NCBI GenBank assembly: GCA_030147525.1
Contig: JASBVF010000007.1
Coordinates: forward strand, 62,001 to 126,000
DNA: 64,000 nucleotides
Direction of reading: 5' to 3'
DNA from: Bacteroidota bacterium
GTDB taxonomy: Bacteria > Bacteroidota > Bacteroidia > Chitinophagales > Saprospiraceae
Shown: one piece after another, positions 5,044 to 62,884 of the stretch
Layout: each line of letters starts with the position of its first letter
How positions within the stretch are numbered: the stretch's first letter is position 1
Program-made: the position numbers and the translations under genes
Notes under the pieces: model-generated
What the model saw: only the letters and a program-made list of their open reading frames with translations
The model's database searches: none
Told to the model about the DNA's origin: nothing

Positions 5044-5095
5044 AGGTGAAATGGTTGAATGGCTGCGGTTATTCAACCATTTTTTTATTTCACCT
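5044..5095 (+). terminator. Terminator after asnS, built from octamer-like repeats
   Basis: A perfect 10-bp stem (5051-5060 with 5071-5080) is followed directly by seven T residues. A second outer pairing (AGGTGAAA with TTTCACCT, 5044-5051 and 5088-5095) encloses it. The left arm reads as related octamers (GGTGAAAT, GGTTGAAT), the style seen at many other sites in this window. Confidence 0.75.
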
Positions 5096-5137
5096 GTTTC
5101 CAAAACTCAACCTTTTAACAATCCAGCAACTTAAATA

Positions 5138-5797
5138 ATGCTCACAGTCCGCCAACTCACAAAAACATACACCTCCGGTAACAAATCCCTCACCGTCCTC
5201 GACGACGTCAGTTTTGACATCGAAGCAGGGCAGACCTTCGCCATCGTTGGCCCATCTGGCAGCGGGAAGACAACGCTGTTGGGCCTCTGCGCCGGACTTG
5301 ACCGGGCGAGTTCCGGCTCCGTCGTGCTGAATGGCATTGCCCTTGACGACCTCGACGAAGACGAACGGGCGGATGTGCGTAGCAAGCACGTGGGCTTTGT
5401 TTTTCAAAATTTTCAGCTCATCCCTACGCTCACAGCCCTGGAAAACGTGATGGTGCCGATGGAACTGCAAGGTCAGAAAGGCGCTGCCCAAAAAGCGATG
5501 GAACTGCTGGAGCGAGTCGGTCTCGCCGATCGCCACCACCACTACCCGGCCCAGCTTTCCGGCGGCGAACAGCAGCGGGTGGCACTGGCACGGGCATTTT
5601 CCAACAGCCCGAAAATCCTCTTCGCCGACGAACCGACCGGTAACCTCGACCCTGAGACGCATGACGTGGTGGAAAAATTGCTTTTTGATTTAAACAAAGA
5701 AGCCGGCACTACGCTCGTTCTGGTTACGCACGACCTCGAACTGGCTGCGAAAACTCAGCACGTTTTAAAATTGAAAGGCGGTAAGATGGCTGATTAA
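5138..5797 (+). CDS. ABC transporter ATP-binding protein, LolD/MacB type
   Basis: The 219-residue ATPase has Walker A GPSGSGKT (38-45), Q-loop Q90 in FVFQNF, signature LSGGEQQRVALARA (140-153) and Walker B ILFADEPTGNLD (160-171). The QNFQLIPTLTALENV and DEPTGNLD wording is typical of the LolD/YbbA/MacB branch, which powers lipoprotein release or exporter-type permeases rather than nutrient uptake. No permease gene adjoins it, so its partner must be elsewhere; this resembles stand-alone YbbA/LolD genes. It runs between two terminator/promoter boundaries and is probably transcribed singly. Confidence 0.9.
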   Translation: MLTVRQLTKTYTSGNKSLTVLDDVSFDIEAGQTFAIVGPSGSGKTTLLGLCAGLDRASSGSVVLNGIALDDLDEDERADVRSKHVGFVFQNFQLIPTLTALENVMVPMELQGQKGAAQKAMELLERVGLADRHHHYPAQLSGGEQQRVALARAFSNSPKILFADEPTGNLDPETHDVVEKLLFDLNKEAGTTLVLVTHDLELAAKTQHVLKLKGGKMAD

Positions 5798-5818
5798 GGC
5801 TTTCTTAAGACTCCCTGC

Positions 5819-5850
5819 TTTGCGTTTCCCTCCGTTTAGCTTTATTTTTG
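5819..5850 (+). promoter_or_regulatory. Bacteroidota-type promoter for the TlpA-family gene
   Basis: A -33 TTTG (5819-5822), a 20-bp spacer and a -7 TATTTTTG (5843-5850) match the Bacteroidota housekeeping consensus exactly. The gene starts 58 bp downstream of the -7 element. Confidence 0.75.
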
Positions 5851-5908
5851 CAAAACTTTTGGCAAACTCCTCAACCTTTTCCACTTATTTTTAATCAAAT
5901 TTCTCCGT

Positions 5909-7294
5909 ATGAAGTCCCTTGTACTTGTACTCCTTTCCACCACAATTTTTCTGCTCTCTTCTGCTTTCGTCAATTTTTCCGGCGAAAAAGGCGAGGTACT
6001 GCTTACCTGCAACGTCAATGCTTGCAACAAGGTAGATTCACTCTACCTGTTTGAGTTTAATGGAGTTAATTTCAAAAAGGCGATGGCTGCCCCCACCTCT
6101 GACTGGCAGACGTATCAGTTTAAAATGAAAGCCACGTCCCCTCGTTTTTATTACATCGGCCTGGATGGAAACAACATGAAACCCATCATTCTTGGTACGG
6201 AGGAAAAGGTGACACTAAACGGTACCTGCGCTCAATTCCAGATTGCGCAACTGCCTGATTCTGATTTGAATACAAAATATGAGGAAGTGAAAATGCTGAT
6301 CAATCAGCACAAAAATGAGTTAAGCCAACAACTCCGCCAGTTACAGGCTGCCAATGCCCAGCAAAATATTGAAGTTGCCAACGCAGCCGTCAGAGCGATG
6401 GCTGACCTGGATCAAAAACGCCTGGGTGAGCTTGAATCTTTGAAGAAAACGAACCCCTACCTCGCAAAAATTCTGGCCCTGAATACCTACCTCAGCTATC
6501 AGAATAACGGTACGGGTGATATGAGCGAAATCGAGTATTTCGGTCAAAAATATTTCCAGTTGGTCGACTGGAAAGATGCCGACTACAACCACATGCCGTG
6601 GGTCTACGAAAGTGTCAAAGGCTACGCTCAAACCCTGGCCAGCGTGGGATTGCCTGACAGCAACCAAAAAAACTTCATTGACCAACTGCTCAATCAAATC
6701 CCCGCAAATTCCCGCACTTACATGCTGGCTCTCGGCGGCGTCATCTCCGGACTGGAGTCGAAAAAAAGCCCACTGATTGGCAATTACGCCCAGCGCTACG
6801 TTGACAAATACAAAAAAACAGAGCCGGAAGCGGCAGCTCAACTTCAGCAATTACTGCAAATGTCAGCCAGCTTCATCACCGGCGCCGAAGCACCGGATTT
6901 CACGATGAATAACCTCGAAAACCAACCCGTCAAACTTTCCGATTTTCGGGGAAAAGTGCTGCTGATTGACTTCTGGGCAAGCTGGTGTGGCCCTTGCCGC
7001 AGGGAAAATCCGCATGTCGTCGGACTCTACAACCAATACCACGAAAAAGGATTTGACATTCTCGGTGTCAGTCTCGACCGTACGAGAGAGCCCTGGGTCG
7101 CTGCCATTGAGAAGGACGGCCTGGCCTGGCACCACGTTTCCGATCTGCAGGGCTGGTCAAACTCAGCAGCCCGGCTGTATGGCGTTTCGTCTATTCCTCA
7201 GACGGTACTGCTCGACCGGGAGGGGAAAATCATTGCCCGGAACCTTAGAGGTGAGGCATTGGATGCCAAGTTGAAGGAAATTTTCGGAGAGTAA
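5909..7294 (+). CDS. TlpA-family thiol-disulfide oxidoreductase
   Basis: This 461-residue exported protein has an N-terminal signal/anchor (MKSLVLVLLSTTIFLLSSAF), a middle helical region resembling the DUF4369-containing family, and a C-terminal thioredoxin fold. The active site is WCGPC with C360 and C363, preceded by LSDFRGKVLLIDFWAS. The cis-Pro loop is seen in GVSSIPQTVLLDREG. Family members reduce or reshuffle disulfides in the periplasm, often serving cytochrome c maturation or redox stress; the substrate here is unknown. The sequence is full length and has its own promoter and terminator. Confidence 0.9.
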   Translation: MKSLVLVLLSTTIFLLSSAFVNFSGEKGEVLLTCNVNACNKVDSLYLFEFNGVNFKKAMAAPTSDWQTYQFKMKATSPRFYYIGLDGNNMKPIILGTEEKVTLNGTCAQFQIAQLPDSDLNTKYEEVKMLINQHKNELSQQLRQLQAANAQQNIEVANAAVRAMADLDQKRLGELESLKKTNPYLAKILALNTYLSYQNNGTGDMSEIEYFGQKYFQLVDWKDADYNHMPWVYESVKGYAQTLASVGLPDSNQKNFIDQLLNQIPANSRTYMLALGGVISGLESKKSPLIGNYAQRYVDKYKKTEPEAAAQLQQLLQMSASFITGAEAPDFTMNNLENQPVKLSDFRGKVLLIDFWASWCGPCRRENPHVVGLYNQYHEKGFDILGVSLDRTREPWVAAIEKDGLAWHHVSDLQGWSNSAARLYGVSSIPQTVLLDREGKIIARNLRGEALDAKLKEIFGE

Positions 7295-7311
7295 AAAAAA
7301 TGAAACTTCAG

Positions 7312-7356
7312 AAAAAACGGCCTCGTGCATACTCTTTGCACGGGGCTATTTTTTTT
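7312..7356. terminator. Bidirectional terminator between convergent genes
   Basis: A 10-bp stem (7320-7329 with 7337-7346, one G-T pair) has an A tract on its left and a T tract on its right. It serves the TlpA gene on the plus strand. The stop codon of the minus-strand gene (7346-7348) overlaps the right arm. Confidence 0.8.
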
Positions 7357-7813
7357 CCTCAATCCGAAGGTCGCTGATAATCGCTGCTGCCTCAGGATGC
7401 TTTTCCAAAAAATCACGGAACATCGGCTCATCGAGCAGGAAGGTGATCGTTCTGCCGAACTTACCGGGTGCTTTCAGGTGAATACGGACGAGGTGAAAAA
7501 TCCCTGCGTCCCGCTCTGTGATCTTTTTTATGTTGTGAAAAGGGTAGCGGTAGGTTTTGAAATAATTGGAAGCGTAGACGTACAACTCATCCATCTCCAC
7601 CCGCTTCAGTTGAATCAGGGTCAAATACAGTAAACCGGAGCCGGCAAGGAAAAAGATCGTAAGCCCGATTTTCATCGTCTGCGCCGAAACAGGGCCAAAA
7701 GTTGTATTCTCCAAACGCCAGACGGCGATGGTGAAAATTCCGAAAAAGACAATCCAGAACGTTGGAATGAAGATTTTCAAAAAAAGGGTAGCGTTGGATG
7801 AAATTCGCTGCAT
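7346..7813 (-). CDS. Small membrane protein, PH-domain-like C-terminal part
   Basis: I do not recognise a named family. The 155-residue protein has two hydrophobic segments near residues 9-31 and 45-67, followed by a soluble part of about 85 residues (MDELYVYASNYFKTYRYPFH, then IKKITERD) whose pattern resembles bacterial PH-like membrane-attached domains. No signal peptide cleavage site is evident. It ends in the shared terminator and lies 33 bp downstream of tatC on the same strand, so the two are probably co-transcribed. Function is not assigned. Confidence 0.7.
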   Translation of the reverse strand: MQRISSNATLFLKIFIPTFWIVFFGIFTIAVWRLENTTFGPVSAQTMKIGLTIFFLAGSGLLYLTLIQLKRVEMDELYVYASNYFKTYRYPFHNIKKITERDAGIFHLVRIHLKAPGKFGRTITFLLDEPMFRDFLEKHPEAAAIISDLRIEEKK

Positions 7814-7846
7814 AGTTTTTTATTAAAAACGGTGGGTCAGGTTCAA

Positions 7847-8704
7847 TCAGGGATTCATCTTCTCTTCAAGCGCCTTTTGTTTTTCAACCCGCTTGGAAAC
7901 GTAAATACTGATTTCGTAAAGACCCATCAATGGGAGCGCAATCAAAATCTGGCTGAAAGCATCAGGTGGCGTGATGATGGCTGCCAGCGCCACCAGAATG
8001 ACAATGGCGTGCCGCCGGTATTGTTTTAAAAAATTGGAAGAAAGTACGCCTACCTGTGTCAGCACATGCGCAACGACCGGCAGCTCGAACACCATTCCGG
8101 TTGGCAAGGTGAACATGACCATGTAGCCAATGTAGGAGCCCAAAGCTGGAGTCGAATCTACGCCCGGCAGCTGATAGCCCGTTAAAAAGCTAACAGCAAA
8201 CGGTGAGATGACAAAGTAGCCAAACATGACCCCAAGTGTGAAAAGTACCGAACAAACTCCGACCGCATACCGGGTTACCCGGCGCTCTTTTTCGTACAGG
8301 CCCGGCTTGATAAACCGCCAGAACTCCCAGAAAATATAGGGGAAAGCCAGTACGAAGCCCAACAGAAACGAAACTTTCATGTGCGTCAGGAAAAGTTCGC
8401 CCATGTCAGGAGTGATCAGTTTAAATTCCGTCGGAAAAAAGCAGAGGTTGTCGCCCAGCCCGATGAAGTTCGAGAAGCTGCAAATCACCCGATAGGTGAT
8501 GAAATCCGGATCCCGGGGACCAAAAATAACAGTGGTAAAAACGAAATCTTTGGCCAGAAACAGCGCAATCGCAAATACGCCAATGGCCAATACCGACCTG
8601 AAAATATGCCAGCGCAATTCCTCCAGGTGGTCGAAAAAGGACATTTCCTTTTCTACGATATTGCCATTTTCGGGCCCTTCTATTCCAAGTTGATCAAGTG
8701 CCAT
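7847..8704 (-). CDS. tatC: Sec-independent protein translocase subunit TatC
   Basis: TatC is the receptor subunit of the twin-arginine export pathway in the cytoplasmic membrane. The 285-residue protein has six predicted membrane segments. Family signatures are FFDHLEELRWHIFRS near the N-terminus, PYIFWEFWRFIKPGLYEKER in the loop after TM2, and the C-terminal AAIITPPDAFSQ. It has a periplasmic insertion between TM1 and TM2, as is usual in Bacteroidota. No tatA lies beside it. A likely Tat substrate with an RRDF signal is encoded at 40377-41405. Its 5' leader is almost wholly occupied by an octamer-repeat hairpin, described separately. Confidence 0.97.
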   Translation of the reverse strand: MALDQLGIEGPENGNIVEKEMSFFDHLEELRWHIFRSVLAIGVFAIALFLAKDFVFTTVIFGPRDPDFITYRVICSFSNFIGLGDNLCFFPTEFKLITPDMGELFLTHMKVSFLLGFVLAFPYIFWEFWRFIKPGLYEKERRVTRYAVGVCSVLFTLGVMFGYFVISPFAVSFLTGYQLPGVDSTPALGSYIGYMVMFTLPTGMVFELPVVAHVLTQVGVLSSNFLKQYRRHAIVILVALAAIITPPDAFSQILIALPLMGLYEISIYVSKRVEKQKALEEKMNP

Positions 8705-8712
8705 GTTTTTTT

Positions 8713-8832
8713 AGTAGGCGAGTAGGCGGGTAGGCGAGTAGGCGGGTAGGCGAGCAAGGAGTAACGGTAATCTAAAATTACCTGGCTACTTGCCTGCTCG
8801 CTTACTCGCCTACTTGCCTACCCGCCTACTCG
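8713..8832. repeat. Octamer tandem-repeat hairpin (unit GTAGGCGR) in the tatC leader
   Basis: The left arm holds five consecutive octamers of the form GTAGGCGA/GTAGGCGG (8714-8753) and a degenerate sixth. The right arm (about 8786-8832) carries the reverse-complement octamers (such as CTACTTGC, CTACCCGC, TTACTCGC). About 25 bp separate the arms. The unit is shared with the hairpin at 40305-40375. The left arm ends 9 bp from the tatC start codon. Confidence 0.9.
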
Positions 8833-8845
8833 AAAAGAACGGCTG

Positions 8846-8853
8846 CAAATGTA
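8846..8853 (-). promoter_or_regulatory. -7 promoter element for tatC
   Basis: On the minus strand this reads TACATTTG followed by CAGCC, matching TANNTTTG. A convincing -33 TTG at the right distance is not seen. If used, transcription would begin just before the octamer hairpin. Confidence 0.45.
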
Positions 8854-9302
8854 ACAAATGCAGAGATTGATAGAAACGATTAAACTTCACAAATAGGCTG
8901 ACGGTTGTCTTCAACCGGTAAAAATCTTCCCGTTTGACCTGTTTCTTTTTTTTGAAAGCTGCATTAAATATCCGTAACGTACATCGATCCGCTTTTTTAA
9001 ACAGGGCTTCCATGTAACATCGCTACCTTTTTTTATCCATATTTCTTCATTCGGAAAAACTATTTGTGCTATGATTATTTTAAAAGGGCCACAACAGCTC
9101 AGGGGGCACCCTGTACTCGTTTCGTCGGTAACCGGCGTCTCTGCAGAAGCTTTACATATCGTTTTTACCCGGGCAGGAGCACATCCTTAGCCTATGCGGT
9201 GAGTTTCATTTTTTATCTGTGGAATTAGTGGAGTGGTAAAGGGAAGTTGTTATTTCTCCTTCTGCCAATTTACCAGTTCATTGATGCTTTAATAAAAATC
9301 CA

Positions 9303-10106
9303 ATGAAAAGACTAATCGCTATCACGGCGCTCTTCAGCGTTGCACTAAATCTTTTTGCCCAACCCGTCAATGACATCGCTTTTCGAACGGTCGTTAAAGA
9401 CAAGCCGGTACTGGCCTGGGATGTTCCCAACGAACGGGATATCCTCTGGCAAAAGCGCATCTGGCGGGTCATCGATGTGCGGGAAAAAATGAACTTGCCG
9501 TTTACCTACCCTGAAGCGCCGTTTTTTGAAATTTTAACCAAAGCCGCCCTCAATGGTGAGCTGACTTTGTACAGCACGGAGACCGAAGATTTCACCTATC
9601 CGCTGACGGAAGCTGATTTGGATCAAATCGTTCACCGGTACGACACGGTCGAGGTCTGGCCGCTGGAAGGTCAGTTTCCAACGCTCACAGTCGTAGCCAA
9701 TGAAATTTTTTACGAGGATATCAAACGCTTCAGAATCAAGGAGATGTGGTACTTCGACAGTAAAAATTCGAAACTCAATGTGCGCATCCTCGGTATTGCT
9801 CCCATGCAGGATGTGTATGACGAGAACGGGAATTTCAAGTATGAAAAACCAATGTTTTGGGTGAATTACCCTGGCGCAAGAGAATTGCTGGCAAGAGAAA
9901 CTGTCTACCTCACCGGCAACGAAGCGGCCCGGATGACGTGGGAGGATTTGTTTGAAATGCGTATGTTTTCCAGCTATATCTACAAGGAAGGCAACGTCCG
10001 TAACAACCGACTGAAGGATCTCTACTCCGGGGTGGACCTGCTACTGGAGGCAGATAAAATTAAGCAAGAGATTTTTAACTACGAGCATGATTTGTGGGAG
10101 TATTGA
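9303..10106 (+). CDS. gldN: Gliding motility / type IX secretion protein GldN
   Basis: The 267-residue exported protein (signal MKRLIAITALFSVALNLFAQ) matches the GldN/PorN family: DILWQKRIWRVIDVREKMNL near residue 50, the PLTEADLDQIVHRYDT segment, FRIKEMWYFDSKNSKLNVRI, and the C-terminal TWEDLFEMRMFSSYIYKEGN. GldN/PorN is a periplasmic protein that forms rings with the GldK/PorK lipoprotein in the T9SS core. It is normally the last gene of gldKLMN; here it has a long upstream gap and no gldKLM, so it is either a displaced gldN or a second copy such as gldO. The T9SS cargo at 1668-3260 fits the presence of the system. Confidence 0.9.
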   Translation: MKRLIAITALFSVALNLFAQPVNDIAFRTVVKDKPVLAWDVPNERDILWQKRIWRVIDVREKMNLPFTYPEAPFFEILTKAALNGELTLYSTETEDFTYPLTEADLDQIVHRYDTVEVWPLEGQFPTLTVVANEIFYEDIKRFRIKEMWYFDSKNSKLNVRILGIAPMQDVYDENGNFKYEKPMFWVNYPGARELLARETVYLTGNEAARMTWEDLFEMRMFSSYIYKEGNVRNNRLKDLYSGVDLLLEADKIKQEIFNYEHDLWEY

Positions 10107-10113
10107 AGGAGGT

Positions 10114-10170
10114 TAAAAGTTGAAGAGGTGAAGAGTTTAACCTGTTCACCTCTTCGACTTTAAAATTTTT
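10114..10170. terminator. Terminator between gldN and the desaturase, octamer-repeat type
   Basis: The arms 10114-10131 and 10146-10163 pair over 16 of 18 bp and are followed by a T tract on the plus strand. The left arm is made of related units (GTTGAAGA, GGTGAAGA). The stop codon of the minus-strand desaturase lies inside the right arm. Confidence 0.7.
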
Positions 10171-11185: not shown

Positions 11186-11208
11186 GACTTGGGTGGTTTA
11201 AACTAAAA

Positions 11209-11247
11209 CGATGAATGATGAACTGTGAGACGGTTCATCATTCATCG
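11209..11247 (-). terminator. Terminator after rny, heptamer-repeat type
   Basis: A perfect 15-bp stem (11209-11223 with 11233-11247) and 9-nt loop sit just past the rny stop; on the minus strand a TTTT tract follows. The right-hand side continues as 7-bp units (GTTCATC, ATTCATC, GTTTATC, AATCATC) to about 11260. Confidence 0.7.
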
Positions 11248-11268
11248 TTTATCAATCATCGTTCGAAA

Positions 11269-12933: not shown

Positions 12934-13056
12934 GATGGTTTGATGGTTTGATGGTTCGATGGCTTGATGGCCGGAAAATTTGGCAGATGAAATAGCTTTG
13001 AAGCCATTTCAACTTTTCAATCTTTCAACCTTATCAACCACATAACCATTTTACCA
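12934..13056. repeat. Octamer repeat array (unit GATGGTTT) between rny and zapA
   Basis: Five tandem octamers occupy 12934-12973 (GATGGTTT twice, then GATGGTTC, GATGGCTT, GATGGCCG). From about 13004 to 13056 comes a set of roughly complementary 8-9 bp units (such as TTTCAACT, TTTCAATC, TTTCAACC, ATTTTACC), less exactly paired than at other sites. It fills the gap upstream of rny. Confidence 0.8.
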
Positions 13057-13672: not shown

Positions 13673-13675
13673 TTC

Positions 13676-13735
13676 GATTTTTGATTTTTGATTTCGGATT
13701 CAACCTAAACCAACTATTTGATCCGAAATTCAAAA
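13676..13735. repeat. Heptamer repeat hairpin (unit GATTTTT) between pheT and the coiled-coil gene
   Basis: Units GATTTTT, GATTTTT, GATTTCG run from 13676, and the segment 13686-13699 pairs with 13721-13735 apart from one bulged T. It separates pheT from the downstream genes and could act as a partial terminator on the minus strand. Confidence 0.65.
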
Positions 13736-13741
13736 TTGTTT

Positions 13742-16236: not shown

Positions 16237-16255
16237 GTGATGCCAGCTTTGAAAT

Positions 16256-16296
16256 AAAAAAGCCGGAACGCATGCATTTTCGTTCCGGCTTTTTTA
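16256..16296 (-). terminator. Strong hairpin terminator after the NlpC/P60 gene
   Basis: A 10-bp GC-rich perfect stem (16261-16270 with 16281-16290) has A residues on the left and seven T on the right, so it can work in both directions. It lies between the minus-strand peptidase gene and pheT. Confidence 0.85.
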
Positions 16297-16320
16297 TAAA
16301 ATTTTCGATGCAAGGGAAAA

Positions 16321-30780: not shown

Positions 30781-30862
30781 AATGAGTGAAGGATGGAATG
30801 AGAGAATGATAGAAGAAGGAGCCTGGGAAATATTCTATCATTCCATCCTTCACTCAATCAAT
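30781..30862. repeat. Octamer-repeat hairpin upstream of the beta-CASP gene
   Basis: The left arm consists of octamers AATGAGTG, AAGGATGG, AATGAGAG, AATGATAG (30781-30812). 30784-30801 pairs perfectly over 18 bp with 30838-30855. It lies 18 bp before the start codon of the next gene and has no plus-strand T tract, so it may be part of that gene's leader. Confidence 0.8.
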
Positions 30863-36465: not shown

Positions 36466-36503
36466 CAAAAGCCCCGGGCAACTGAATGCCCGGGGCTTTT
36501 TTG
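36466..36503. terminator. Bidirectional terminator between convergent genes
   Basis: A GC-rich 10-bp stem (36471-36480 region with 36488-36497) flanked by A and T tracts separates the polyprenyl synthase gene and the coiled-coil gene. Confidence 0.85.
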
Positions 36504-39104: not shown

Positions 39105-40316
39105 ATGAAACAGAAACATAAAAAACACGCCGACATCGCCCGCCCCGACCTCGGTAATTTTGCCCGCAACGAGTGGGCTATCCTCGGCACCAATTGCGGA
39201 GCGATCAAAAAACTGGCCTTCCAGCTCTCCGAAGCTCTTTCACCCAAATGGAAAGTCGCTTACGTGGATGCTGATCACAAAAGTGCCGATGAAGAGGAGG
39301 CCCACGGCAAAGACCCGAATACGGCCCTGGCCCACGGCGCAGCGATGGAGTACACCGATAAAATCACTTTCCACCGTTTCGATTTTGCTGAAAAACTGAA
39401 CGCCTTCCAGCACCGTCCGATTTTCAACAGCATGGACGCCGTGCTGGTAAACGGCAACCATTTCACCGCCCAAAGCCAGATCGTCGTCATCGATCCGAAG
39501 AAGGAGGATTCCCTCAAACGAAAACTCGACCGCCTGACTGACGTCCAACTCATCCTGTTGACCGAAGGCGTGACCGAAGTCCCCGAATTCCTGTGGGAAC
39601 ACTTAGCAAAACCGGACTCGATTGGCTCTCAATCACCAGTCACAAATCACCAATCACCTGTTTGTCAACTCGCTGATTTTCAAAAAATTAAATCCTTTTT
39701 CGAACAAAAACTGGAAGCTGCACGGCCGCCTCTCAACGGCCTCGTCCTCGTCGGGGGCAAGAGCCGCCGCATGGGCACCGACAAGGCCATGCTTGAATAC
39801 CACGGCAAGCCACAGCAGGATGTGATGATGCAACTGCTGCACCGTTTTTGTGAAAAAACCTATCTCTCCTGTCGCCCTGACCAGGCAGGTGAGTTGGCTT
39901 ACACCCACGAAGTTTTACCGGATACGTTTCTTGGTCTCGGCCCGATGGGCGCCATCCTCACGGCCTTCCGGCAGGCGCCGGACAGCGCCTGGCTGGTGGT
40001 GGCTTGCGACCTGCCGCTGCTCGACGAAGATGCTATTCGTTTTTTGGTTGAAAACCGCAACCCTTCCGCCATGGCAACGGCCTTCCGCAGCCCGGTGAAC
40101 GAATTTCCGGAGCCACTCGTAGCCATTTGGGAGCCGAAAAGCTACCCGGTGCTGCTGCAATTCCTGGCGCAGGGCTACTCCTGCCCCCGCAAGGCACTGA
40201 TCAATTCGCCGGTGCACCTGATCGATGCTCCCAATCCCGATGCATTGATGAACGTGAACACGCCGGAGGATGTGGAAGTAGTTTTGAAAAAACTGGGTTT
40301 GTTAGTAGGCAAGTAG
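39105..40316 (+). CDS. mobA: MobB-like / MobA fusion, molybdenum cofactor guanylyltransferase
   Basis: The 403-residue protein has two parts. The C-terminal part (about 200-403) is MobA, which attaches GMP to molybdopterin: VLVGGKSRRMGTDKAMLEYH, LGPMGAILTAFR and VVACDLPLLDEDAIRFL. The N-terminal part (1-165) resembles MobB (NEWAILGTNCGAIKKLAFQL), but its P-loop lacks the usual GKT/S, so nucleotide binding there is doubtful. The join at residues 174-186 (GSQSPVTNHQSPV) is encoded by heptamer repeats. The last residues VGK and the stop lie inside an octamer hairpin. It is downstream of moaC in one operon. Confidence 0.9.
   Translation: MKQKHKKHADIARPDLGNFARNEWAILGTNCGAIKKLAFQLSEALSPKWKVAYVDADHKSADEEEAHGKDPNTALAHGAAMEYTDKITFHRFDFAEKLNAFQHRPIFNSMDAVLVNGNHFTAQSQIVVIDPKKEDSLKRKLDRLTDVQLILLTEGVTEVPEFLWEHLAKPDSIGSQSPVTNHQSPVCQLADFQKIKSFFEQKLEAARPPLNGLVLVGGKSRRMGTDKAMLEYHGKPQQDVMMQLLHRFCEKTYLSCRPDQAGELAYTHEVLPDTFLGLGPMGAILTAFRQAPDSAWLVVACDLPLLDEDAIRFLVENRNPSAMATAFRSPVNEFPEPLVAIWEPKSYPVLLQFLAQGYSCPRKALINSPVHLIDAPNPDALMNVNTPEDVEVVLKKLGLLVGK
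39631..39658 (+). repeat. In-gene heptamer repeat in mobA
   Basis: Four consecutive heptamers (AATCACC, AGTCACA, AATCACC, AATCACC) occupy the linker of the MobB-MobA fusion. They are read in frame and give a Ser/Gln/Pro/Val/Thr/Asn/His linker. Confidence 0.85.
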
Positions 40317-40375
40317 GCCGGTAGGCGAGTATGCGAAACCTGCCCGAGTTGCCTACCGGCCTACTCGCCTACTCC
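40305..40375. repeat. Octamer hairpin (unit GTAGGCNN) between mobA and a convergent gene
   Basis: The left arm is GTAGGCAA, GTAGGCCG, GTAGGCGA, GTATGCGA (40305-40336). 40313-40326 pairs perfectly with 40351-40364 and the pairing extends beyond. The unit core GTAGGC is the same as at 8714-8753. The mobA stop codon (40314-40316) lies in the left arm; the convergent gene ends directly after the right arm. Confidence 0.9.
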
Positions 40376-43677: not shown

Positions 43678-43700
43678 GGTTGGAAAAAATGTTGGATTGT

Positions 43701-43758
43701 TGGAATTATTGGATTGCTGAAATTGTCAGGATAACAACCCGGCAATCCAATAATTCCA
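43701..43758 (-). terminator. Repeat-type hairpin after the bTHX gene
   Basis: A perfect 17-bp stem (43701-43717 with 43742-43758) follows the bTHX stop. The left side is made of related units of about 8-9 bp (ATTGTTGG, AATTATTGG, ATTGCTGA). Confidence 0.65.
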
Positions 43759-43765
43759 GCAATTA

Positions 43766-53252: not shown

Positions 53253-53356
53253 TTATTCTCCCGCAGATCACACAGATTTCCGCAAATAGATTTTGGGGAC
53301 TTTCCCAAAGAAAAATTTTGCGTTTAACTGCGGTAATCTGCGGGAGGTAAAATAAT
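53253..53356. repeat. Repeat hairpin (unit like CCGCAGAT) between the symporter and acetyltransferase genes
   Basis: 53257-53268 pairs with 53336-53347 apart from one end mismatch; short units of 8-9 bp (CCGCAGAT, CACACAGAT, TTCCGCAAAT) recur on the left and their complements on the right. A second inner hairpin exists near 53295-53310 (GGGGACTTTCCC). Confidence 0.7.
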
Positions 53357-55190: not shown

Positions 55191-55274
55191 TTTCGTTTGT
55201 TTTTAGCTGTTGGTGCTTGTTTTTGGCTGCCGGCTGTTCAGCCAGCGGTCAAAAGCGAATTGCCAAAGGCGAAT

Positions 55275-57599: not shown

Positions 57600-57633
57600 A
57601 TTTAACTGATATTCAGTTGGAAAGAATAATTTC

Positions 57634-57664
57634 AAAAAAGAAAAAGAAAGGACCCTAAAGTCCT
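57634..57664 (-). terminator. Hairpin with minus-strand T tract after the nagB fusion gene
   Basis: AGGAC (57649-57653) pairs with GTCCT (57660-57664); on the minus strand a T/C-rich tract follows. A second hairpin (57712-57720 with 57726-57734) lies closer to the nagB stop. Together they suggest the kinase-nagB transcript ends before the GH20 gene. Confidence 0.55.
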
Positions 57665-57765
57665 CTCTCCTAACTTAAACCTGTCAAATTAGTGAAACTT
57701 GCATCCTTGGAGTTTCTCAATCATTTTGAGAAACGCAGCCGGTAGCCGCACCGGCCAAATTACAA

Positions 57766-59724
57766 TTATTGCCAATCAAACTTCCACCTCGCAAACGCTT
57801 CCATCGCTTCGTACTCAGCCAGACCGAGTTTGCGGTAGGTTTCAGCGGTAGCCTTGTTGCGTTCTTTTGCCCGCTGGTAAAACTCCCGGGCATCTTCACC
57901 TGGGAACGGAGCGCTGTCTTTCTGCGACTGGTGCATGAAAATCGCCCGCTGCTTCCGCATCACCTGGTCGGGTGACATCGGAACGGCCATGTCAATTTCA
58001 TGAATCGGGAACTCGTGCCAGGCGCCACGGTAGAGCCAGAGCCAACAGTCTTTCATCCATTTTTTCTCCTTTAACCGGTCGAAGGCGGCAAAAATTGCAT
58101 CGAGGCAAACCCGGTGCGTACCGTGCGGGTCGGCAAGGTCGCCGGCAGCGTACACCTGGTGCGGCTGAACTTTTTCGATCAAATCAGCGACGATCTGAAT
58201 ATCGGCTTCGCCAATGTCGCCCTTTCTCACCTTGCCTGTTTCATAAAATGGCATGTCGAGGAAGTGGATCTGGTTGTCGCCAACACCGCTGTAGCGGGCG
58301 CCCGCCCTCGCTTCGCCCCGGCGTATCAACCCCTTGATCGAGCGCACCTCCTGAATATCCGGCTCGCCCAGTTTTTTATTTTTCAAAAACTTGATCACCT
58401 TTTTGTAGCTCTTCTCGATCTCGTCATTCAGGAATCCCTGTCCCTTGCCATATTCCAGCAGGAACTCCGCAAAACGCTGTGCATCGTGGTCGTGTACGGC
58501 AATGTTGCCGCTTGTTTGGTAAGCCACGTGAACTTCGTGCCCTTGGTCTACCAGGCGCATGAAAGTGCCGCCCATGGAAATGACGTCGTCGTCGGGGTGC
58601 GGCGAGAAAATGATGCAGCGTTTTTTCGCCGGTATGGCCCGCTCCGGGCGTGTGGAGTCGTCGGCGTGGCCTTTGCCGCCGGGCCATCCGGATATGGTAT
58701 GTTGTAAACGATTGAAAATCTTGATATTAAGATCGTAAGCGCCATTTTCTTCCAGCATCAGTTCACTGAGGCCGTGTTCGTTGTAGTCTTCGTTGGTCAA
58801 TTTCAGAATGGGCTTGCCGGTGCGCTGAGAGACCCACACGACTGCCTGGCAGGCCAGTTCCTCTGTCCAGTTGCACATGCCGCAGAGCCAGGGCGCTGTG
58901 TTGCGGGTAAGTTGCTCCGCCGCTGCCCGGTCGAGAACGACCCGGATATTGTTGTGTTTTTGCAAAAAAGACGAAGGGACGGACGCTGTGACGGGGCCTT
59001 CCACCGCTTCTCTCACGATGTCTGATTTGTGTTGCCCCCAGGCCAGCAGGTAGATGGTGCGGGCTTGCATGATGCTGGCGATCCCCATCGTAATTGCTCT
59101 GGTGGGCACGTTTTCCTCTTTGATAAAATCCTTGATTGCATCCTGCCGGGTCAGGCCGTCGAGGCGTACCATTCGGGTGGTCGAAGACTCCCACGAACCC
59201 GGTTCGTTGAAGCCGATGTGGCCTGTGCGGCCAATACCAAGGATTTGAATGTCGAGGCCTCCGGCCAGTTTGATCTGCTTTTCGTACCAGTCGCAGTAGG
59301 ACTGTACTTTTTCCATTTCAATCGTTCCGTCAGGGATGTGGATGTTTTCCTTCGGAATGTCCACGTGGTCAAAGAGATGCTCGTGCATGAATCGCCAGTA
59401 GCTCTGTTCAGCGTCTTTCTCCATCGGGTAGTACTCGTCGAGGTTGAAAGTAACGACATTCTGAAAACTGAGGCCGTCTTCCCTGTGCAGGCGCACGAGT
59501 TCCTGGTAAACTTTGATTGGGGACGAACCGGTGGCCAGGCCGAGCACGATTTTTTCACCATCCTGCTGCTTCTGTCGGATGGCGAGGGCGATGCTGCGGG
59601 CAACGTGGACGGACGCTTCCTTGGAGTCGTCCCAGATTTTAACAGGGAGCTTTTCAAAGGTTTTAAATTGAAATTTTAAAACACCTTTCTGATTTGCGGA
59701 AGTGGTATTGGCGGTGGTCAGCAT
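57766..59724 (-). CDS. nagB: Glucosamine-6-phosphate deaminase fused to a LmbE/PIG-L-type deacetylase
   Basis: The 652-residue protein has two domains. Residues about 30-290 are NagB, which converts glucosamine-6-phosphate to fructose-6-phosphate and ammonia: IVLGLATGSSPIKVYQEL, FNLDEYYPMEKDAEQSYWRF, DIQILGIGRTGHIGFNEPGS and RAITMGIASIMQARTIYLLA. Residues about 365-652 are a zinc-dependent LmbE/PIG-L fold with PHPDDD (375-380) and ADPHGTH further on. This double form is known in Bacteroidota. No nagA is in the locus, so the second domain may do the deacetylation. It follows the ROK kinase by 76 bp on the same strand. Confidence 0.93.
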   Translation of the reverse strand: MLTTANTTSANQKGVLKFQFKTFEKLPVKIWDDSKEASVHVARSIALAIRQKQQDGEKIVLGLATGSSPIKVYQELVRLHREDGLSFQNVVTFNLDEYYPMEKDAEQSYWRFMHEHLFDHVDIPKENIHIPDGTIEMEKVQSYCDWYEKQIKLAGGLDIQILGIGRTGHIGFNEPGSWESSTTRMVRLDGLTRQDAIKDFIKEENVPTRAITMGIASIMQARTIYLLAWGQHKSDIVREAVEGPVTASVPSSFLQKHNNIRVVLDRAAAEQLTRNTAPWLCGMCNWTEELACQAVVWVSQRTGKPILKLTNEDYNEHGLSELMLEENGAYDLNIKIFNRLQHTISGWPGGKGHADDSTRPERAIPAKKRCIIFSPHPDDDVISMGGTFMRLVDQGHEVHVAYQTSGNIAVHDHDAQRFAEFLLEYGKGQGFLNDEIEKSYKKVIKFLKNKKLGEPDIQEVRSIKGLIRRGEARAGARYSGVGDNQIHFLDMPFYETGKVRKGDIGEADIQIVADLIEKVQPHQVYAAGDLADPHGTHRVCLDAIFAAFDRLKEKKWMKDCWLWLYRGAWHEFPIHEIDMAVPMSPDQVMRKQRAIFMHQSQKDSAPFPGEDAREFYQRAKERNKATAETYRKLGLAEYEAMEAFARWKFDWQ

Positions 59725-59800
59725 TGATATTTTTATTTATTTTTTAAAAGTTGACTGTCAGTATTTCATGTAAAATTTAAACAAATAGCCCGTCGAAATC

Positions 59801-60766
59801 TTACTTCCTGATGGTTGGCAAGCCCTGCCAAACCAGCGAGGCCGTCCCCAGTAACGCCGCATCATTGACACCCAGGGCAGAGGGCAGTAGTTTGATTTTG
59901 CCTTTGTAAAAATCCAGCAGGTAAAACTCCATGCTTTTTGCTGCCGGTTGAAAAAGTAGCTCGCCGGCAGCAGCCAGCCCTCCGGACAGAAAAATGGCTT
60001 CGGGATCGAACCAGGCGGCCATGTCGGCCATTGCCCGGCCCAATGTTTCACCGGTGTAATCAAATGCCTGCAACGCCAGAACATCACCGGCATTGGCAGC
60101 CTGCGCAATGGCTTTGGCGGTCATGTTTTCGTAGCTGTAATTTCGCAGGCTGCTTTCAGCCATTGAGTTGGCCATCAGCTTGAACGCAGTGCGTTTCAGG
60201 CCCGTTGCCGAAACATAGGTTTCAAGGCACCCCTTGCGGCCGCAGCCACACTCACGGCCAAACTTATTCACGCAAACATGGCCGGCTTCGCTGGCATGGC
60301 CGCCCCTGCCGCTGATGAGGTTTCCATCCACAACCACCCCACATCCCAGGCCAGTGCCAAGCGTTAGCAGGATGAAGTTTTTCATCCCTTTCGCTGCGCC
60401 GTAGTTCAGCTCGCCAAGCGTGGAGGCGTTGCTGTCTTTTACCAGAGAAACAGGCAGGTCGTATTTCGATGTCAGTACTTTTACAAAGTCAACTTTGGGT
60501 GAAAAGGGCAGGTTGGCAGCATTCTCGATGGTGCCTTCCCGTTCGTTGGCGCTGGGAGCACCTGCTCCGATGCCTGTCAGGTGGGCCTCGCTGCCGGCCT
60601 CTTCCATCAACTCACTGATGGACACAAAAAGCGACTCAAAAAAATCGTTTTCGCTTTTTTGTTTAGACGTGTAGAAAAATTTACGGTTGGCAATTTGCCC
60701 CGCCTCATCCACCAAAGCAATTTTGGTTGTCGTGCCTCCGATGTCTATGCCAAGTGCAAATTTCAC
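59801..60766 (-). CDS. ROK-family sugar kinase, probable N-acetylglucosamine kinase
   Basis: The 321-residue kinase has the ATP/phosphate motif GIDIGGTTTKIALVDEAG, GAGAPSANEREGTIENAANL, the sugar-binding site LVKDSNASTLGELNYGAAKG with the catalytic Asp, LTLGTGLGCGVVVDGNLISG, and the ROK zinc motif CGCGRKGCLETYVSATG with H in GHASEAGHVCV. Specificity for GlcNAc rather than glucose is inferred from its partner nagB. It is the first gene of the minus-strand unit, controlled by the promoter and LacI sites at 60826-60870. Confidence 0.9.
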   Translation of the reverse strand: MKFALGIDIGGTTTKIALVDEAGQIANRKFFYTSKQKSENDFFESLFVSISELMEEAGSEAHLTGIGAGAPSANEREGTIENAANLPFSPKVDFVKVLTSKYDLPVSLVKDSNASTLGELNYGAAKGMKNFILLTLGTGLGCGVVVDGNLISGRGGHASEAGHVCVNKFGRECGCGRKGCLETYVSATGLKRTAFKLMANSMAESSLRNYSYENMTAKAIAQAANAGDVLALQAFDYTGETLGRAMADMAAWFDPEAIFLSGGLAAAGELLFQPAAKSMEFYLLDFYKGKIKLLPSALGVNDAALLGTASLVWQGLPTIRK

Positions 60767-60825
60767 AGGAATTGGATAAAAGGGTGAAAAATTGAGTCAC
60801 AAACCTACAAATAAAAAGTGATACT

Positions 60826-60837
60826 GTGTGCGCACAC
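60826..60837. promoter_or_regulatory. LacI-type operator O1, perfect 12-bp palindrome
   Basis: GTGTGCGCACAC is a complete palindrome with the central CG typical of LacI-family operators. On the minus strand it lies immediately downstream of the kinase -7 element, at the expected start of transcription. Confidence 0.8.
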
Positions 60838-60838
60838 G

Positions 60839-60870
60839 CAAAAATATTTTTCTGCTGTGTGCGAACACAA
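60839..60870 (-). promoter_or_regulatory. Promoter of the kinase-nagB unit
   Basis: On the minus strand a -33 TTG (60870-60868), a 21-bp spacer and -7 TATTTTTG (60846-60839) match the Bacteroidota consensus. Operator O2 lies inside the spacer and O1 just past the -7 element, a layout for direct repression. Confidence 0.75.
60857..60868. promoter_or_regulatory. LacI-type operator O2
   Basis: GTGTGCGAACAC differs from O1 by one base and is 31 bp away, start to start, about three helical turns, so both sites face the same side of the DNA. Confidence 0.8.
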
Positions 60871-60997
60871 TTAAAATATTCCCTACTTTGCTGACCAAAT
60901 CTGAAGGATCGTATATCGCCGGGGTTTAAAGGTTGGCAGGTATTTTTATAAAATTATCCATCAATCAAATGTCTGACGAGGTTATCGGCTTTTAATT

Positions 60998-62083
60998 ATG
61001 ACTAACAAACGTATACGCATCAAAGATATCGCTGAAAAGGCGGGTGTTTCTACCGGGACCGTCGATCGGGTACTGCACGACAGGGGCAACGTTTCGCCTG
61101 ATGTCAAACAGCTCGTCCTCAACGTGATGGATGAGTTAGGTTACGAGCGCAACATCATCGCCAGTACACTCGCCTACAACCGTACCTGGCGCATTGCCAC
61201 GCTGATGCCTGAGTTTCACACCGACCCGTACTGGGAGCAGCCCAATGCTGGCATCGACCGGGCGATGAAGGCTCTCCGGCATTACGGCGTGGTGCTGGAG
61301 CCTCACATCTTCATGTTGTTTGATCAAAACAGCTTTGTGCAACACGCCCGGGAAATTCTGGACAACCCGCCGGATGCGGTGTTGTTCGCACCGGTTTTTT
61401 TAAAAGAAAGTACGCTGCTGCTGAAGGCCTGTGAGGAAAAAGGCATCCCTAACGTGATGATTAACACGAATATTGAAAACGCAAAATCGCTGAGCTACAT
61501 CGGTCAGGACAGCTACCAGAGTGGAGTTCTTGCCGGCCGTCTGCTTCACTTTGGATTGAATGATGGTGAAACGGCCCTGCTGCTCAACCTCGAAATTGGC
61601 AGCTACAATGCAAAACACCTGATCGACAAGGAACAGGGTTTTCGGGACTATTTCGCCCGTTTTCCGGGGCAGCGGATCGAAATTGTGAAGCGGGATTTCG
61701 AAGATTTTGATAATAAAAATAAGTTGACGGCTTTTCTGAATGAGCTTTTCAAGGGTCATCCCAGACTCAACGGAATTTTTTTCACCAATTCCCGGGCTTA
61801 CAAAGCGGTTGACTGTCTGCCGGAAAAAATCGTACAAAAAATAAAAATCGTCGGCTTTGATCTCGTAGAGCCAAACCTCGTGCATCTGCGAAACAACAAC
61901 ATTGATTTTCTCATCAATCAAAACCCCGTTCAGCAGGGCTTCCTTGGCGTGATCAGTCTATTCAATCACCTGGTGAAAAAACAAAAAATTGAACCTCAGC
62001 AGTACCTGCCGTTGGATATTGTAGTAACGGAAAACCTTGACTATTATCTGCGACGGCAGGACGAGTTGCAGTTGGTGGTTTGA
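60998..62083 (+). CDS. LacI-family transcriptional regulator
   Basis: The 361-residue protein has an N-terminal LacI helix-turn-helix (RIKDIAEKAGVSTGTVDRVL, then HDRGNVSPDVKQLVLNVMDE) and a periplasmic-binding-protein-like sensor domain from about residue 65 (RIATLMPEFHTDPYWEQPNA, then NVMINTNIENAKSLSYIGQD). The usual hinge helix is seen as ERNIIASTLA. It is divergent from the kinase-nagB unit, with two palindromes between, so it probably represses that unit and perhaps itself. The effector is likely an amino-sugar phosphate; this is inference. Confidence 0.92.
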   Translation: MTNKRIRIKDIAEKAGVSTGTVDRVLHDRGNVSPDVKQLVLNVMDELGYERNIIASTLAYNRTWRIATLMPEFHTDPYWEQPNAGIDRAMKALRHYGVVLEPHIFMLFDQNSFVQHAREILDNPPDAVLFAPVFLKESTLLLKACEEKGIPNVMINTNIENAKSLSYIGQDSYQSGVLAGRLLHFGLNDGETALLLNLEIGSYNAKHLIDKEQGFRDYFARFPGQRIEIVKRDFEDFDNKNKLTAFLNELFKGHPRLNGIFFTNSRAYKAVDCLPEKIVQKIKIVGFDLVEPNLVHLRNNNIDFLINQNPVQQGFLGVISLFNHLVKKQKIEPQQYLPLDIVVTENLDYYLRRQDELQLVV

Positions 62084-62151
62084 TCATCTGGGAAAGAGGA
62101 TCGAAAATGAGAGGGCAAATTTTTTATTCACTCCTGAAACGCACTGCCGGG

Positions 62152-62742
62152 TCAAAACCAACGGGGAGTTGTTCGGAGGTAGTTCTGGTAAGTTTCGCCG
62201 TGCATTTTGGTTAAAAACGCTTCCTCCATTCGCACCTGAATTTGCAGCACCGTCCACGTCAGCGCGTAAGCCACCACTGTCAGTGCATTGGGCAGCACCA
62301 ACACCAAGCCGCCCATCGTGAGCCGCATTCCGAGAAAAATCGGATTTCGGGAGAAGCGGAAAATACCTGACGATATCAGCTCCGTGCGATTCTTCTCATC
62401 AATACCAATACGCCAGGATTCTTTCATTTGGGATTGGGCTATCACGATCAGCAGCAGCGAGGCGTGCAAGATCAGCCAACCCAGCCACCGGAGCGATTCC
62501 CTTTCGAAATACCAGACAGGCAGCAGGTACTGGTTCCAGTCCGGAATAAAGGCATTAATGCCAACGGCTACCAGCGTCATCACTGTCAGTATTCTGAAAA
62601 CCTTGCCGGTAAACCCTTGAGCAGAGTCGTCGTTCGGTACTACGAATGGGTTGACGCCTGTCCGCCGCCAAACCCGGCGGGTCGGCAAAATGAAAGTGAT
62701 CAGAAAGTAAGCGATGACAAAAAAAAGCAGGTAGTATTCCAT
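62152..62742 (-). CDS. Isoprenylcysteine carboxyl methyltransferase-like membrane protein
   Basis: The ATG at 62742 gives 196 residues with five or so membrane helices. The C-terminal SAM-binding region resembles ICMT/PEMT proteins: LISSGIFRFSRNPIFLGMRL (RNPxxLG) and VRMEEAFLTKMHGETYQNYL (EExxL...G..Y..Y). The natural acceptor in bacteria is usually unknown, possibly lipids. A frame extension to 62841 lacks signal features. It is convergent with the LacI gene. Confidence 0.85.
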   Translation of the reverse strand: MEYYLLFFVIAYFLITFILPTRRVWRRTGVNPFVVPNDDSAQGFTGKVFRILTVMTLVAVGINAFIPDWNQYLLPVWYFERESLRWLGWLILHASLLLIVIAQSQMKESWRIGIDEKNRTELISSGIFRFSRNPIFLGMRLTMGGLVLVLPNALTVVAYALTWTVLQIQVRMEEAFLTKMHGETYQNYLRTTPRWF

Positions 62743-62811
62743 TTCACTTTGATTTTCAGTTAAAAATGAAAGAAGCGGCAATTTAACACCTGCCAACAAA
62801 CCCTGCTTACA

Positions 62812-62819
62812 TATCTTTG
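62812..62819 (+). promoter_or_regulatory. -7 promoter element for mqnC
   Basis: TATCTTTG matches TANNTTTG. It lies 66 bp before the mqnC start. No -33 TTG stands at the right distance. Confidence 0.45.
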
Positions 62820-62854
62820 TTCTCCTTTTACAAAATTCCAAACGCCCTCAAACC

Positions 62855-62884
62855 AATTCACTAATTTACTAATTCACTGAATCA
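62855..62884 (+). repeat. Octamer repeat (unit AATTCACT) just before mqnC
   Basis: AATTCACT, AATTTACT, AATTCACT run in tandem and a partial unit (GAATCA) ends at the base before the start codon. It has no opposed arm. Confidence 0.75.

What the first reader, a model, noticed from the sequence alone, without database searches (positions are those of the whole stretch)
5044..62884. Family of hairpins built from locus-specific 7-8 bp tandem units
At least twelve intergenic sites share one architecture: a run of tandem 7-8 bp units, usually with a second run of reverse-complement units opposite. Sites: 5044-5095, 8713-8832, 10114-10163, 11209-11260, 12934-13056, 13676-13735, 30781-30862, 40305-40375, 43701-43758, 53253-53356, and 62855-62884 without an opposed arm. 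Units differ (GTAGGCGA, GATGGTTT, GATTTTT, AATGAGTG, AATTCACT and others) but period and arms recur. Both arms match although the unit has drifted, which suggests copying of one arm into the other (template switching) or selection as a terminator. This resembles short tandem repeats of cyanobacteria in style, but the folded-back form with different units per site is not one I know as described for this phylum.
Basis: partly seen in the sequence, partly recalled or inferred. Interest (0 to 1): 0.75.

Follow-up and report, generated by a model that had tools for sequence, protein, structure and literature searches.

The report
Tandem-armed hairpins: short selfish elements
The odd hairpins between genes are best read as short copies of small selfish DNA elements whose longer copies carry one of two little-understood genes between the same kind of repeat arms, an arrangement also seen on plasmids of distant bacteria.

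Summary
The hairpins are real and far above chance, but their units are not locus-specific. In 1.58 Mb of this Saprospiraceae genome 95 of 271 strong hairpins have arms with a 7-9 bp period; 89 of 94 fall into 14 unit families. Pooled over 13 genomes they start a median 4 nt after a stop codon, lack a T-tract (1 of 77; other hairpins 50 of 162) and have G-rich 5' arms (123 against 10). In congeners the same places hold ordinary terminators, 6-8 nt gaps or other hairpins. The same arms flank genes: all 7 four-helix-bundle genes (PF05635, the 23S-rRNA intervening-sequence protein family) and all 4 GxxExxY genes of this genome lie between inverted arms (10 of 11 above shuffles), mostly of the short hairpins' families (10 of 11), each just after a same-strand stop. 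Saprospiraceae at large and cyanobacterial plasmids show similar layouts. Best reading: miniature members of dispersed, IVS-like selfish elements. Movement was not observed and its mechanism is unknown.

The parts
5044..5095 (.). hairpin 3 bp after the stop of an aminoacyl-tRNA synthetase (class II D/K/N) gene; units AGGTGAAAT / GGTTGAAT, period not significant
   Evidence: z -6.4
8713..8832 (.). tandem hairpin, unit GTAGGCGR (family 3), between divergent tatC and gldN; -89.7 kcal/mol
10114..10163 (.). hairpin between convergent gldN and fatty-acid desaturase, unit about GTTGAAGA; period of the arms not significant
11206..11260 (.). tandem hairpin, unit GATGAAT (family 2), after the RNase Y stop; 10 of 12 congeners have an ordinary terminator-like stem here
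12934..13056 (.). GATGGTTT array with an imperfect opposed arm; congeners show shorter ATGGTT-like sequence or other units
   Evidence: z -2.7
13673..13741 (.). hairpin of GATTTCG/GATTTTT words filling the 69 nt between the pheT stop and the next start; period p 0.066; the gap is 6-8 nt in four congeners
30781..30862 (.). tandem hairpin, AATGAGNN-like units, 10-16 bp upstream of a beta-CASP metallo-hydrolase gene
40304..40375 (.). tandem hairpin, unit GTAGGCNN (family 3), between convergent genes; the stop of the MobA-like gene (40316) lies inside its left arm
43696..43763 (.). tandem hairpin, unit about TTGGATTG
53253..53356 (.). hairpin with CTCCCGCAGAT outer arms, like family 11; C-rich 5' arm, an exception to the usual polarity; period not significant
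62855..62884 (.). one-armed array AATTCACT, the complement of family 0 (AATTRGTR)

Best explanation
The hairpins are short, cargo-less members of dispersed families of small selfish elements. A full-length member in this genome is 475-633 bp: an inverted pair of arms built from 7-9 bp tandem units, around one small gene that encodes either a four-helix-bundle protein (PF05635, known from intervening sequences in 23S rRNA) or a GxxExxY protein (PF13366 / TIGR04256, PD-(D/E)XK nuclease superfamily). Both forms sit mostly just after a stop codon; the gene-bearing form points the same way as the gene before it, so it could be read through from that gene. Slippage changes the number of units and template switching keeps the two arms alike. 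Shown here: the families, position, orientation, arm sharing, and differences between species at the same place. Inferred: that they are mobile, that short forms derive from or depend on long forms, and that arms are homogenised by template switching. Not known: the chemistry of movement.
For: Families: 14 unit families of 2-19 loci in 1.58 Mb (single-linkage on shared 6-mers). The outer end GGATTGGATCACGGATT of family 6 has 19 matches in this genome (1 mismatch allowed), while 8 of 394 other Bacteroidota genomes have one match each. GTAGGCGAGTAGGCG: 24 matches here, in 0 of 13 congeners, one match in 1 of 26 further relatives. Defined ends: the 14 outer arms of family 6 begin at AGGATTG or within 4 bp before it, with unrelated flanks. 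Differences between species: pheT site, RNase Y site. Cargo: 7 of 7 PF05635 and 4 of 4 PF13366 genes lie between inverted arms; 10 of 11 exceed 40 shuffles of their flanks and reach score 18. Control: 6 of 394 genes of 250-750 bp reach 18; 3 of the 6 are these same families, 1 is a Y1 transposase with its own palindromes, 2 are host genes between neighbouring hairpins. Cargo arms match a dispersed short hairpin better than 15 shuffles in 10 of 11. All 11 follow a same-strand stop at -20 to +28 nt. Tandem arrays: 16 of 22 windows next to the 11 genes, 3 of 44 control windows. Beyond this genome: 40 of 52 windows next to PF05635 genes of 26 Saprospiraceae genera, 9 of 104 controls; inverted arms of score 15 or more in 13 of 30 loci, 0 of 900 shuffles. 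Cyanobacterial plasmids: 21 of 26 windows against 2 of 26, inverted arms of score 14 or more in 8 of 13. GxxExxY on plasmids: inverted arms in 4 of 8. In 1 of 2 Nostoc plasmid stretches of 50 kb, two short hairpins of the same unit lie within 6 kb of the four-helix-bundle element.
Against: Movement was not seen: no target duplication was evident by eye (no statistic run), no strain-level insertion polymorphism was available, and the nearest congener shares 78.5% DNA identity in the regions compared. Loops of short members are unrelated within most families (only family 0 clearly exceeds shuffles), which simple deletion of a cargo gene does not predict. Families 2, 9, 10, 11, 12 and 13 have no cargo copy among the 11. 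Arms are not always inverted: in a cruder shared-6-mer test of 26 Saprospiraceae loci, 8 exceed shuffles in direct and only 3 in inverted orientation (the shuffles were made for the inverted comparison only), and L370, L372 and L382 look direct by eye. One of the 13 inverted Saprospiraceae loci (L346) is cut by a contig end and its arms are not tandem. Plasmid loci L363, L374, L377 and L383 have no clear inverted arms, L378 has one arm only, L369 ties its shuffles. For GxxExxY plasmid genes tandem arrays are significant in only 4 of 16 windows (0 of 16 controls). The L325 arms only tie shuffled flanks, and L330 arms do not beat shuffles against the short hairpins. Of 71 intergenic arrays, 29 have no exact opposed 10-mer within 160 nt. 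One of the two Nostoc stretches has no short hairpin of the unit. Same-strand placement could be selection after insertion.
Confidence: 0.77

Rival explanations
1. Host-made structures: short tandem arrays arise in situ by slippage at gene ends and are turned into hairpins by template switching, with no mobile element. The small genes are themselves mobile and simply land in or spawn such arrays.
For: At 12934-13056 the flank GATGTCAAAAG is shared with several congeners and the GATGGTTT array looks expanded from a shorter ATGGTT-containing sequence; 29 of 71 intergenic arrays are one-armed by a simple test; arms are more alike within than between elements; PMC8794818 (abstract and start of introduction seen) shows that template switching can create and maintain stems.
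Against: It does not explain genome-wide unit families with shared outer ends, expansion of one 17-mer in one of 395 genomes, or why the arms flank these two gene families and few others.
Confidence: 0.15
2. Functional transcription terminators or mRNA 3'-end stabilisers kept by selection; tandem units are a by-product.
For: Position just after stop codons, few in divergent gaps (9 of 90, against 194 of 960 gaps), more in convergent ones (24 of 90 against 135 of 960); at the RNase Y site they stand where 10 of 12 congeners have ordinary terminator-like stems; very stable folds.
Against: T-tract in 1 of 77 against 50 of 162 other hairpins, and no excess of G-U over A-C mismatches (65 to 81); at the pheT site four congeners have a 6-8 nt gap with no hairpin.
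Confidence: 0.12
3. REP / REPIN elements moved by a RAYT-type Y1 transposase.
For: Similar intergenic placement; the genome has 4 PF01797 matches; one Y1 gene at C59 lies between GATTTTT-family arms.
Against: Four Y1 matches for about 14 families, one of them at a contig end and perhaps an IS200 copy (my guess); non-periodic REP-like hairpins flank the Y1 genes at C48 and C59; the arms go with PF05635 and PF13366 instead.
Confidence: 0.05

Closest known systems
Intervening sequences (IVS) of bacterial 23S rRNA carrying the S23p / four-helix-bundle ORF (PMC4990558, abstract and passages seen)
   Same: Small element of a few hundred bp, terminal inverted repeats forming a stem, one PF05635-family ORF in the loop, described as selfish, sporadic distribution.
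   Different: Known IVS lie in 23S rRNA; these lie after stop codons of protein genes, have 7-9 bp tandem arms, come in many unit families, have many cargo-less short copies, and can carry GxxExxY instead.
REP elements and REPINs with RAYT transposase (PMC3733652, PMC3116915: starts of abstracts in search listings only)
   Same: Short palindromes dispersed in intergenic DNA in species-specific populations (partly from recall).
   Different: No 7-9 bp periodicity is recalled for them; the partner gene is a Y1 transposase, not PF05635 or PF13366.
Short tandemly repeated repetitive (STRR) sequences of cyanobacteria (PMC2670836, passages seen)
   Same: About 7 bp tandem units between genes, able to form hairpins, one example near a gene 3' end, function unknown.
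   Different: Not described in the passages seen as arms of gene-bearing elements; here arms of 7-9 bp units flank four-helix-bundle genes on cyanobacterial plasmids.
TAACTGA direct repeats of Beggiatoaceae, Cyanobacteria and five Bacteroidetes (PMC4679880, abstract and passages seen)
   Same: Intergenic heptamer arrays, also in Bacteroidetes.
   Different: Direct repeats of one unit, mostly just upstream of start codons; no opposed arms or cargo in the passages read.
Diversity-generating retroelements with Avd (PMC10053308, PMC3240598: passages seen)
   Same: PF05635 is described as resembling Avd; the BPP-1 homing target needs a DNA hairpin or cruciform just after VR, at the end of its gene, whose stem sequence may vary.
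   Different: No reverse transcriptase, template repeat or variable repeat was searched for here.

Membership tests
23S rRNA IVS elements | PF05635 ORF between terminal inverted repeats | tested here: met
   7 of 7 PF05635 genes in the genome, in the long forms; the window holds no PF05635 or PF13366 match
23S rRNA IVS elements | located inside a 23S rRNA gene | tested here: not met
   all 11 long forms lie next to long ORFs on the upstream side; no rRNA family matches in the window
23S rRNA IVS elements | excised from RNA by RNase III | not testable with these tools
   needs RNA work
REP / REPIN | non-periodic palindromes linked to a RAYT (Y1) gene | tested here: not met
   arms are periodic; Y1 genes at C48 and C59 have their own non-periodic REP-like hairpins
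Intrinsic terminators | stem followed by a T-tract | tested here: not met
   1 of 77 against 50 of 162 other hairpins in codirectional gaps
MITE-like non-autonomous elements | short copies share terminal sequences with gene-bearing copies in the same genome | tested here: met
   10 of 11 gene-bearing loci match a dispersed short hairpin better than 15 shuffles
MITE-like non-autonomous elements | target-site duplication or shown mobility | not tested
   junctions only read by eye, none evident; no close strains available
Cyanobacterial STRR | intergenic heptamer-type tandem repeats | tested here: inconclusive
   same style, periods 7, 8 and 9 here; common descent of the arms cannot be judged from sequence
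Diversity-generating retroelement | reverse transcriptase with template and variable repeats | not tested
   no search for reverse transcriptases was made in this genome

The most novel reading that the evidence does not exclude
A previously unrecognised class of mobile element, found here in Bacteroidota and Cyanobacteriota and hinted at in Gemmatimonadota (11-bp unit) and Pseudomonadota, that uses neither a known transposase nor a known recombinase: inverted arms of short tandem units around a four-helix-bundle (Avd-like) or GxxExxY (PD-(D/E)XK) gene, inserted in sense orientation just after stop codons, with swarms of cargo-less hairpins. 23S rRNA IVS and cyanobacterial STRR hairpins would be special cases. 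Because PF05635 resembles Avd, which acts in reverse-transcriptase homing to a DNA hairpin at a gene end, the elements may spread by a hairpin-targeted, RNA-templated route.
Probability: 0.4. Interest if true: 0.95.

Novelty: new variant of a known kind. Interest (0 to 1): 0.85.

Why it matters
Four-helix-bundle (S23p) genes matched in 54 of 61 Saprospiraceae genomes and GxxExxY genes in 41 of 60 genomes of the class, yet PMC4990558 gives S23p no known function and the two papers found for GxxExxY name it only in passing. Placing both in one element architecture gives each a testable role, supports the old suggestion, reported in PMC4990558, that the IVS ORF serves mobility, and offers an origin for intergenic tandem-repeat hairpins, perhaps including STRR of cyanobacteria. 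It also shows that a gene's end can differ between an ordinary terminator, a near-zero gap and a 70-350 bp insert within one genus.

Tried and rejected
Considered and rejected or left weak: (1) RNA-level selection by wobble asymmetry: G-U 65 against A-C 81, no signal. (2) Rfam: no match in the window. (3) Paired-gene synteny for the 95 hairpins: gene order is too poorly conserved in the DNA held, 3 usable pairs only; replaced by single-gene anchors. (4) Loops as remnants of cargo: only family 0 loops clearly exceed shuffles. (5) An ad hoc profile over 1.94 Mb of other DNA held found 4 four-helix-bundle genes and no GxxExxY gene: two have inverted arms of score 25 (L118, G004), one has arrays in direct orientation (L140), one lies at the end of its locus. 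(6) Shared 6-mers as a measure of inverted against direct arms: 3 of 26 inverted, 8 of 26 direct above shuffles; base composition widens the null for inverted arms. (7) Four-helix-bundle relatives in phage records: none at E 1e-3. (8) The 74-aa ORF between family 0 arms at C59 has no Pfam match. (9) Target-site duplications were not evident by eye; no statistic was run.

Corrections to my notebook: it calls the gene at 3599-5041 sufB, but Pfam shows a class II tRNA synthetase; it gives 9 of 12 terminators at the RNase Y site, the listing shows 10 of 12; it gives 8 or more short gaps at pheT, one search shows 4. Numbers differ slightly between runs because p values come from random shuffles (95 tandem hairpins, 94). 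Rows dropped: hairpins of score under 13; 4 of 30 Saprospiraceae loci cut by contig ends were left out but kept; 'inside gene' and 'edge' hairpins were left out of orientation counts. Hairpins at the pheT site (G000, G009, G010) and the G010 hairpin at the RNase Y site are called tandem by eye only: period p 0.066 and 0.92 for G000 and G010 at pheT, none detected for G009 (loop beyond my limit), p 0.33 for G010 at RNase Y.
Full report
WHAT IS THERE. The window lies in an unnamed 7.08 Mb genome in 59 contigs. Its gene at 3599-5041, a class II aminoacyl-tRNA synthetase, has its closest named relatives in Saprospiraceae and unplaced Bacteroidetes metagenome genomes. The 11 listed places hold the sequences described; ten fold better than shuffles and one is a single arm. 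Strong hairpins, and arrays at lags 7, 8 and 16, do not occur in shuffled sequence at the thresholds used. Only 5 of the 11 sites pass a strict joint test. Ordinary terminators without visible periodicity lie nearby, for example 16254-16297 and 36467-36500, so tandem hairpins look like a separate class within one genome.

GENOME-WIDE CENSUS. In 1.58 Mb of this genome (five contigs or parts) I found 271 hairpins of score 13 or more; 95 have arms with a significant 7-9 bp period. The arms of 94 cluster into 14 unit families of 2-19 loci plus 5 singletons: AATTRGTR, GGTTTGA-like, GATGAAC, GTAGGCNN, GATTTNN, AATGAGNN, ACGGATTNN with AGGATTGA, ACGCAGAG, AATGTAG, ACACATAG and others. Units are thus family-specific, not locus-specific. 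Two words are expanded only here among the genomes searched: GTAGGCGAGTAGGCG (24 matches; 0 of 13 congeners, one match in 1 of 26 further relatives) and GGATTGGATCACGGATT (19 matches; one each in 8 of 394 other Bacteroidota genomes). Tandem hairpins occur in congeners with other units (18 in 359 kb of G004, 5 in 196 kb of G009).

POSITION AND COMPOSITION. Pooled over 13 genomes (135 tandem hairpins, 309 others), tandem hairpins in codirectional gaps begin a median 4 nt after the upstream stop and end 23 nt before the next start (other hairpins: 24 and 97.5). A run of five T at the 3' end occurs in 1 of 77 against 50 of 162. The 5' arm is richer in G than C in 123 and poorer in 10, in every gene context; C makes up 8% of the 5' arms in this genome. 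I have no proven reason for this polarity. In this genome 9 of 90 lie in divergent gaps, against 194 of 960 gaps of 40 bp or more.

DIFFERENCES BETWEEN SPECIES. After the RNase Y stop (site 11206-11260) 10 of 12 congeners have a GC-rich, non-periodic stem followed by a T-rich stretch, while G000 and G009 have tandem hairpins of different units and G010 a long AT-rich hairpin with GGTATT words. After the pheT stop the same small coiled-coil gene follows in 9 of 12 congeners: the gap is 6, 6, 7 and 8 nt in G006, G007, G004 and G008; 51, 53 and 72 nt without a hairpin in G003, G005 and G002; but 69 nt in G000, 131 in G009 and 349 in G010, filled with opposed repeat-unit arms by eye. The start codon is ATG in the four short gaps and G002, TTG or GTG in the three with arms, and TTG also in G003 and G005. 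These sites behave like insertions at gene ends.

THE SAME ARMS CARRY GENES. The 17-mer end of family 6 led to a copy with 526 bp from end to end, holding a GxxExxY gene. This genome has four PF13366 and seven PF05635 matches. All eleven genes lie between inverted arms; best scores exceed 40 shuffles of the flanks in 10 of 11, and the eleventh (L325) ties. The arms are those of dispersed families: GTAGGC, GGTTTAA, AATTRGTR, GATTGCAG, AATGTAG, AGGATTGA, ACACTGATTTTTATGATC, ACGCAGAG and ACGGATT (10 of 11 above 15 shuffles). Among 394 control genes of 250-750 bp, 6 have comparable flanks, 3 of them these same families. The elements are 475-633 bp and each follows the stop of a same-strand ORF at -20 to +28 nt (11 of 11; neighbours there are long ORFs, not curated genes).

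BEYOND THIS GENOME. PF05635 matches occur in 54 of 61 Saprospiraceae genomes sampled. In 26 uncut loci, 40 of 52 adjoining 250-nt windows have significant tandem arrays, against 9 of 104 windows 650-1300 nt away; inverted arms score 15 or more in 13 of 30 loci; other pairs are direct repeats. On cyanobacterial plasmids 21 of 26 adjoining windows against 2 of 26 controls are tandem, with inverted arms in 8 of 13 loci. GxxExxY on plasmids is weaker: inverted arms in 4 of 8, namely Gemmatirosa (11-bp unit), Bernardetia, Bacteroides finegoldii and Sphingomonas, the last between fabD and fabG, and tandem arrays in 4 of 16 windows against 0 of 16. In the 19 annotated plasmid loci the listed upstream gene is on the same strand in 17 (that gene table is incomplete). 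In one of two Nostoc stretches, two short hairpins of the same unit lie 3-6 kb from the four-helix-bundle element; the other has none.

MECHANISM. Shown: family structure, end conservation in family 6, co-occurrence with two gene families, same-strand placement, turnover between species. Inferred: mobility; that short hairpins are non-autonomous partners of the gene-bearing forms; homogenisation of arms by template switching, which fits arms being more alike within than between elements and the lack of wobble bias, and is known in principle (PMC8794818, abstract). Open: the enzyme. PF05635 is described as resembling Avd of diversity-generating retroelements (PMC10053308, passage), whose homing target needs a hairpin just after the variable repeat at the end of its gene, with free stem sequence (PMC3240598, passages); one protein here also matches the bAvd model at E 6e-9, below its cut-off. 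This is a lead, not evidence of reverse transcription. PF13366 belongs to the PD-(D/E)XK nuclease superfamily, so DNA cutting is the obvious alternative.

WHAT IS KNOWN. Ten paper searches were made. 'GxxExxY' occurs in 2 papers of the library, both in passing. The nearest descriptions are IVS elements (PMC4990558), STRR hairpins in cyanobacteria (PMC2670836), TAACTGA repeats (PMC4679880) and REP/REPIN elements (search listings only). None of the passages read links tandem-armed hairpins with these two gene families; subscription journals are mostly not held, so this is not proof of absence.

Noticed in passing
G000:C59:159173-160365 (own genome; loci L097, L098, L069): A Y1-transposase (PF01797) gene with its own REP-like inner inverted repeats lies between outer inverted arms of the GATTTTT tandem family.
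   Followed up: partly
L067 (G000:C48) 1150-1242 and 1986-2078: A second PF01797 gene is flanked by clear non-periodic REP-like hairpins (GCCGGGTTATTTACCCGGC).
   Followed up: no
G000:C59:144599-144985: Inverted AATTRGTR arms enclose a 74-aa ORF without a Pfam match: possibly a third kind of cargo.
   Followed up: partly
G000:C56:316586-317324 and G000:C54:33408-34773: Host genes lie between two neighbouring hairpins of one family, like a composite element (leuD-like and rnfG-like by my reading of the translation, no family search).
   Followed up: no
G010 downstream of pheT (L213): A 349-bp insert with long opposed GTGATTAGTAAA arms and another hairpin inside, but no recognised gene.
   Followed up: no
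window 1607-1661: Perfect 26-bp palindrome with a 3-nt loop and no visible tandem period.
   Followed up: no
window 39630-39658: Four CAATCAC heptamers inside the MobA-like gene 39105-40316.
   Followed up: no
L322-L325, L373-L376: GxxExxY arms mostly have 8-9 bp periods and often a CRCNGA-like core (CACGGATT, CACAGAG, CGCAGAG, CACTGATT), while four-helix-bundle arms are mostly 7-8 bp; seen by eye only.
   Followed up: no
L371 (Gemmatirosa kalamazoonensis plasmid 1): GxxExxY gene between two complete hairpins built of the 11-bp unit GGACTGAAGAA.
   Followed up: partly
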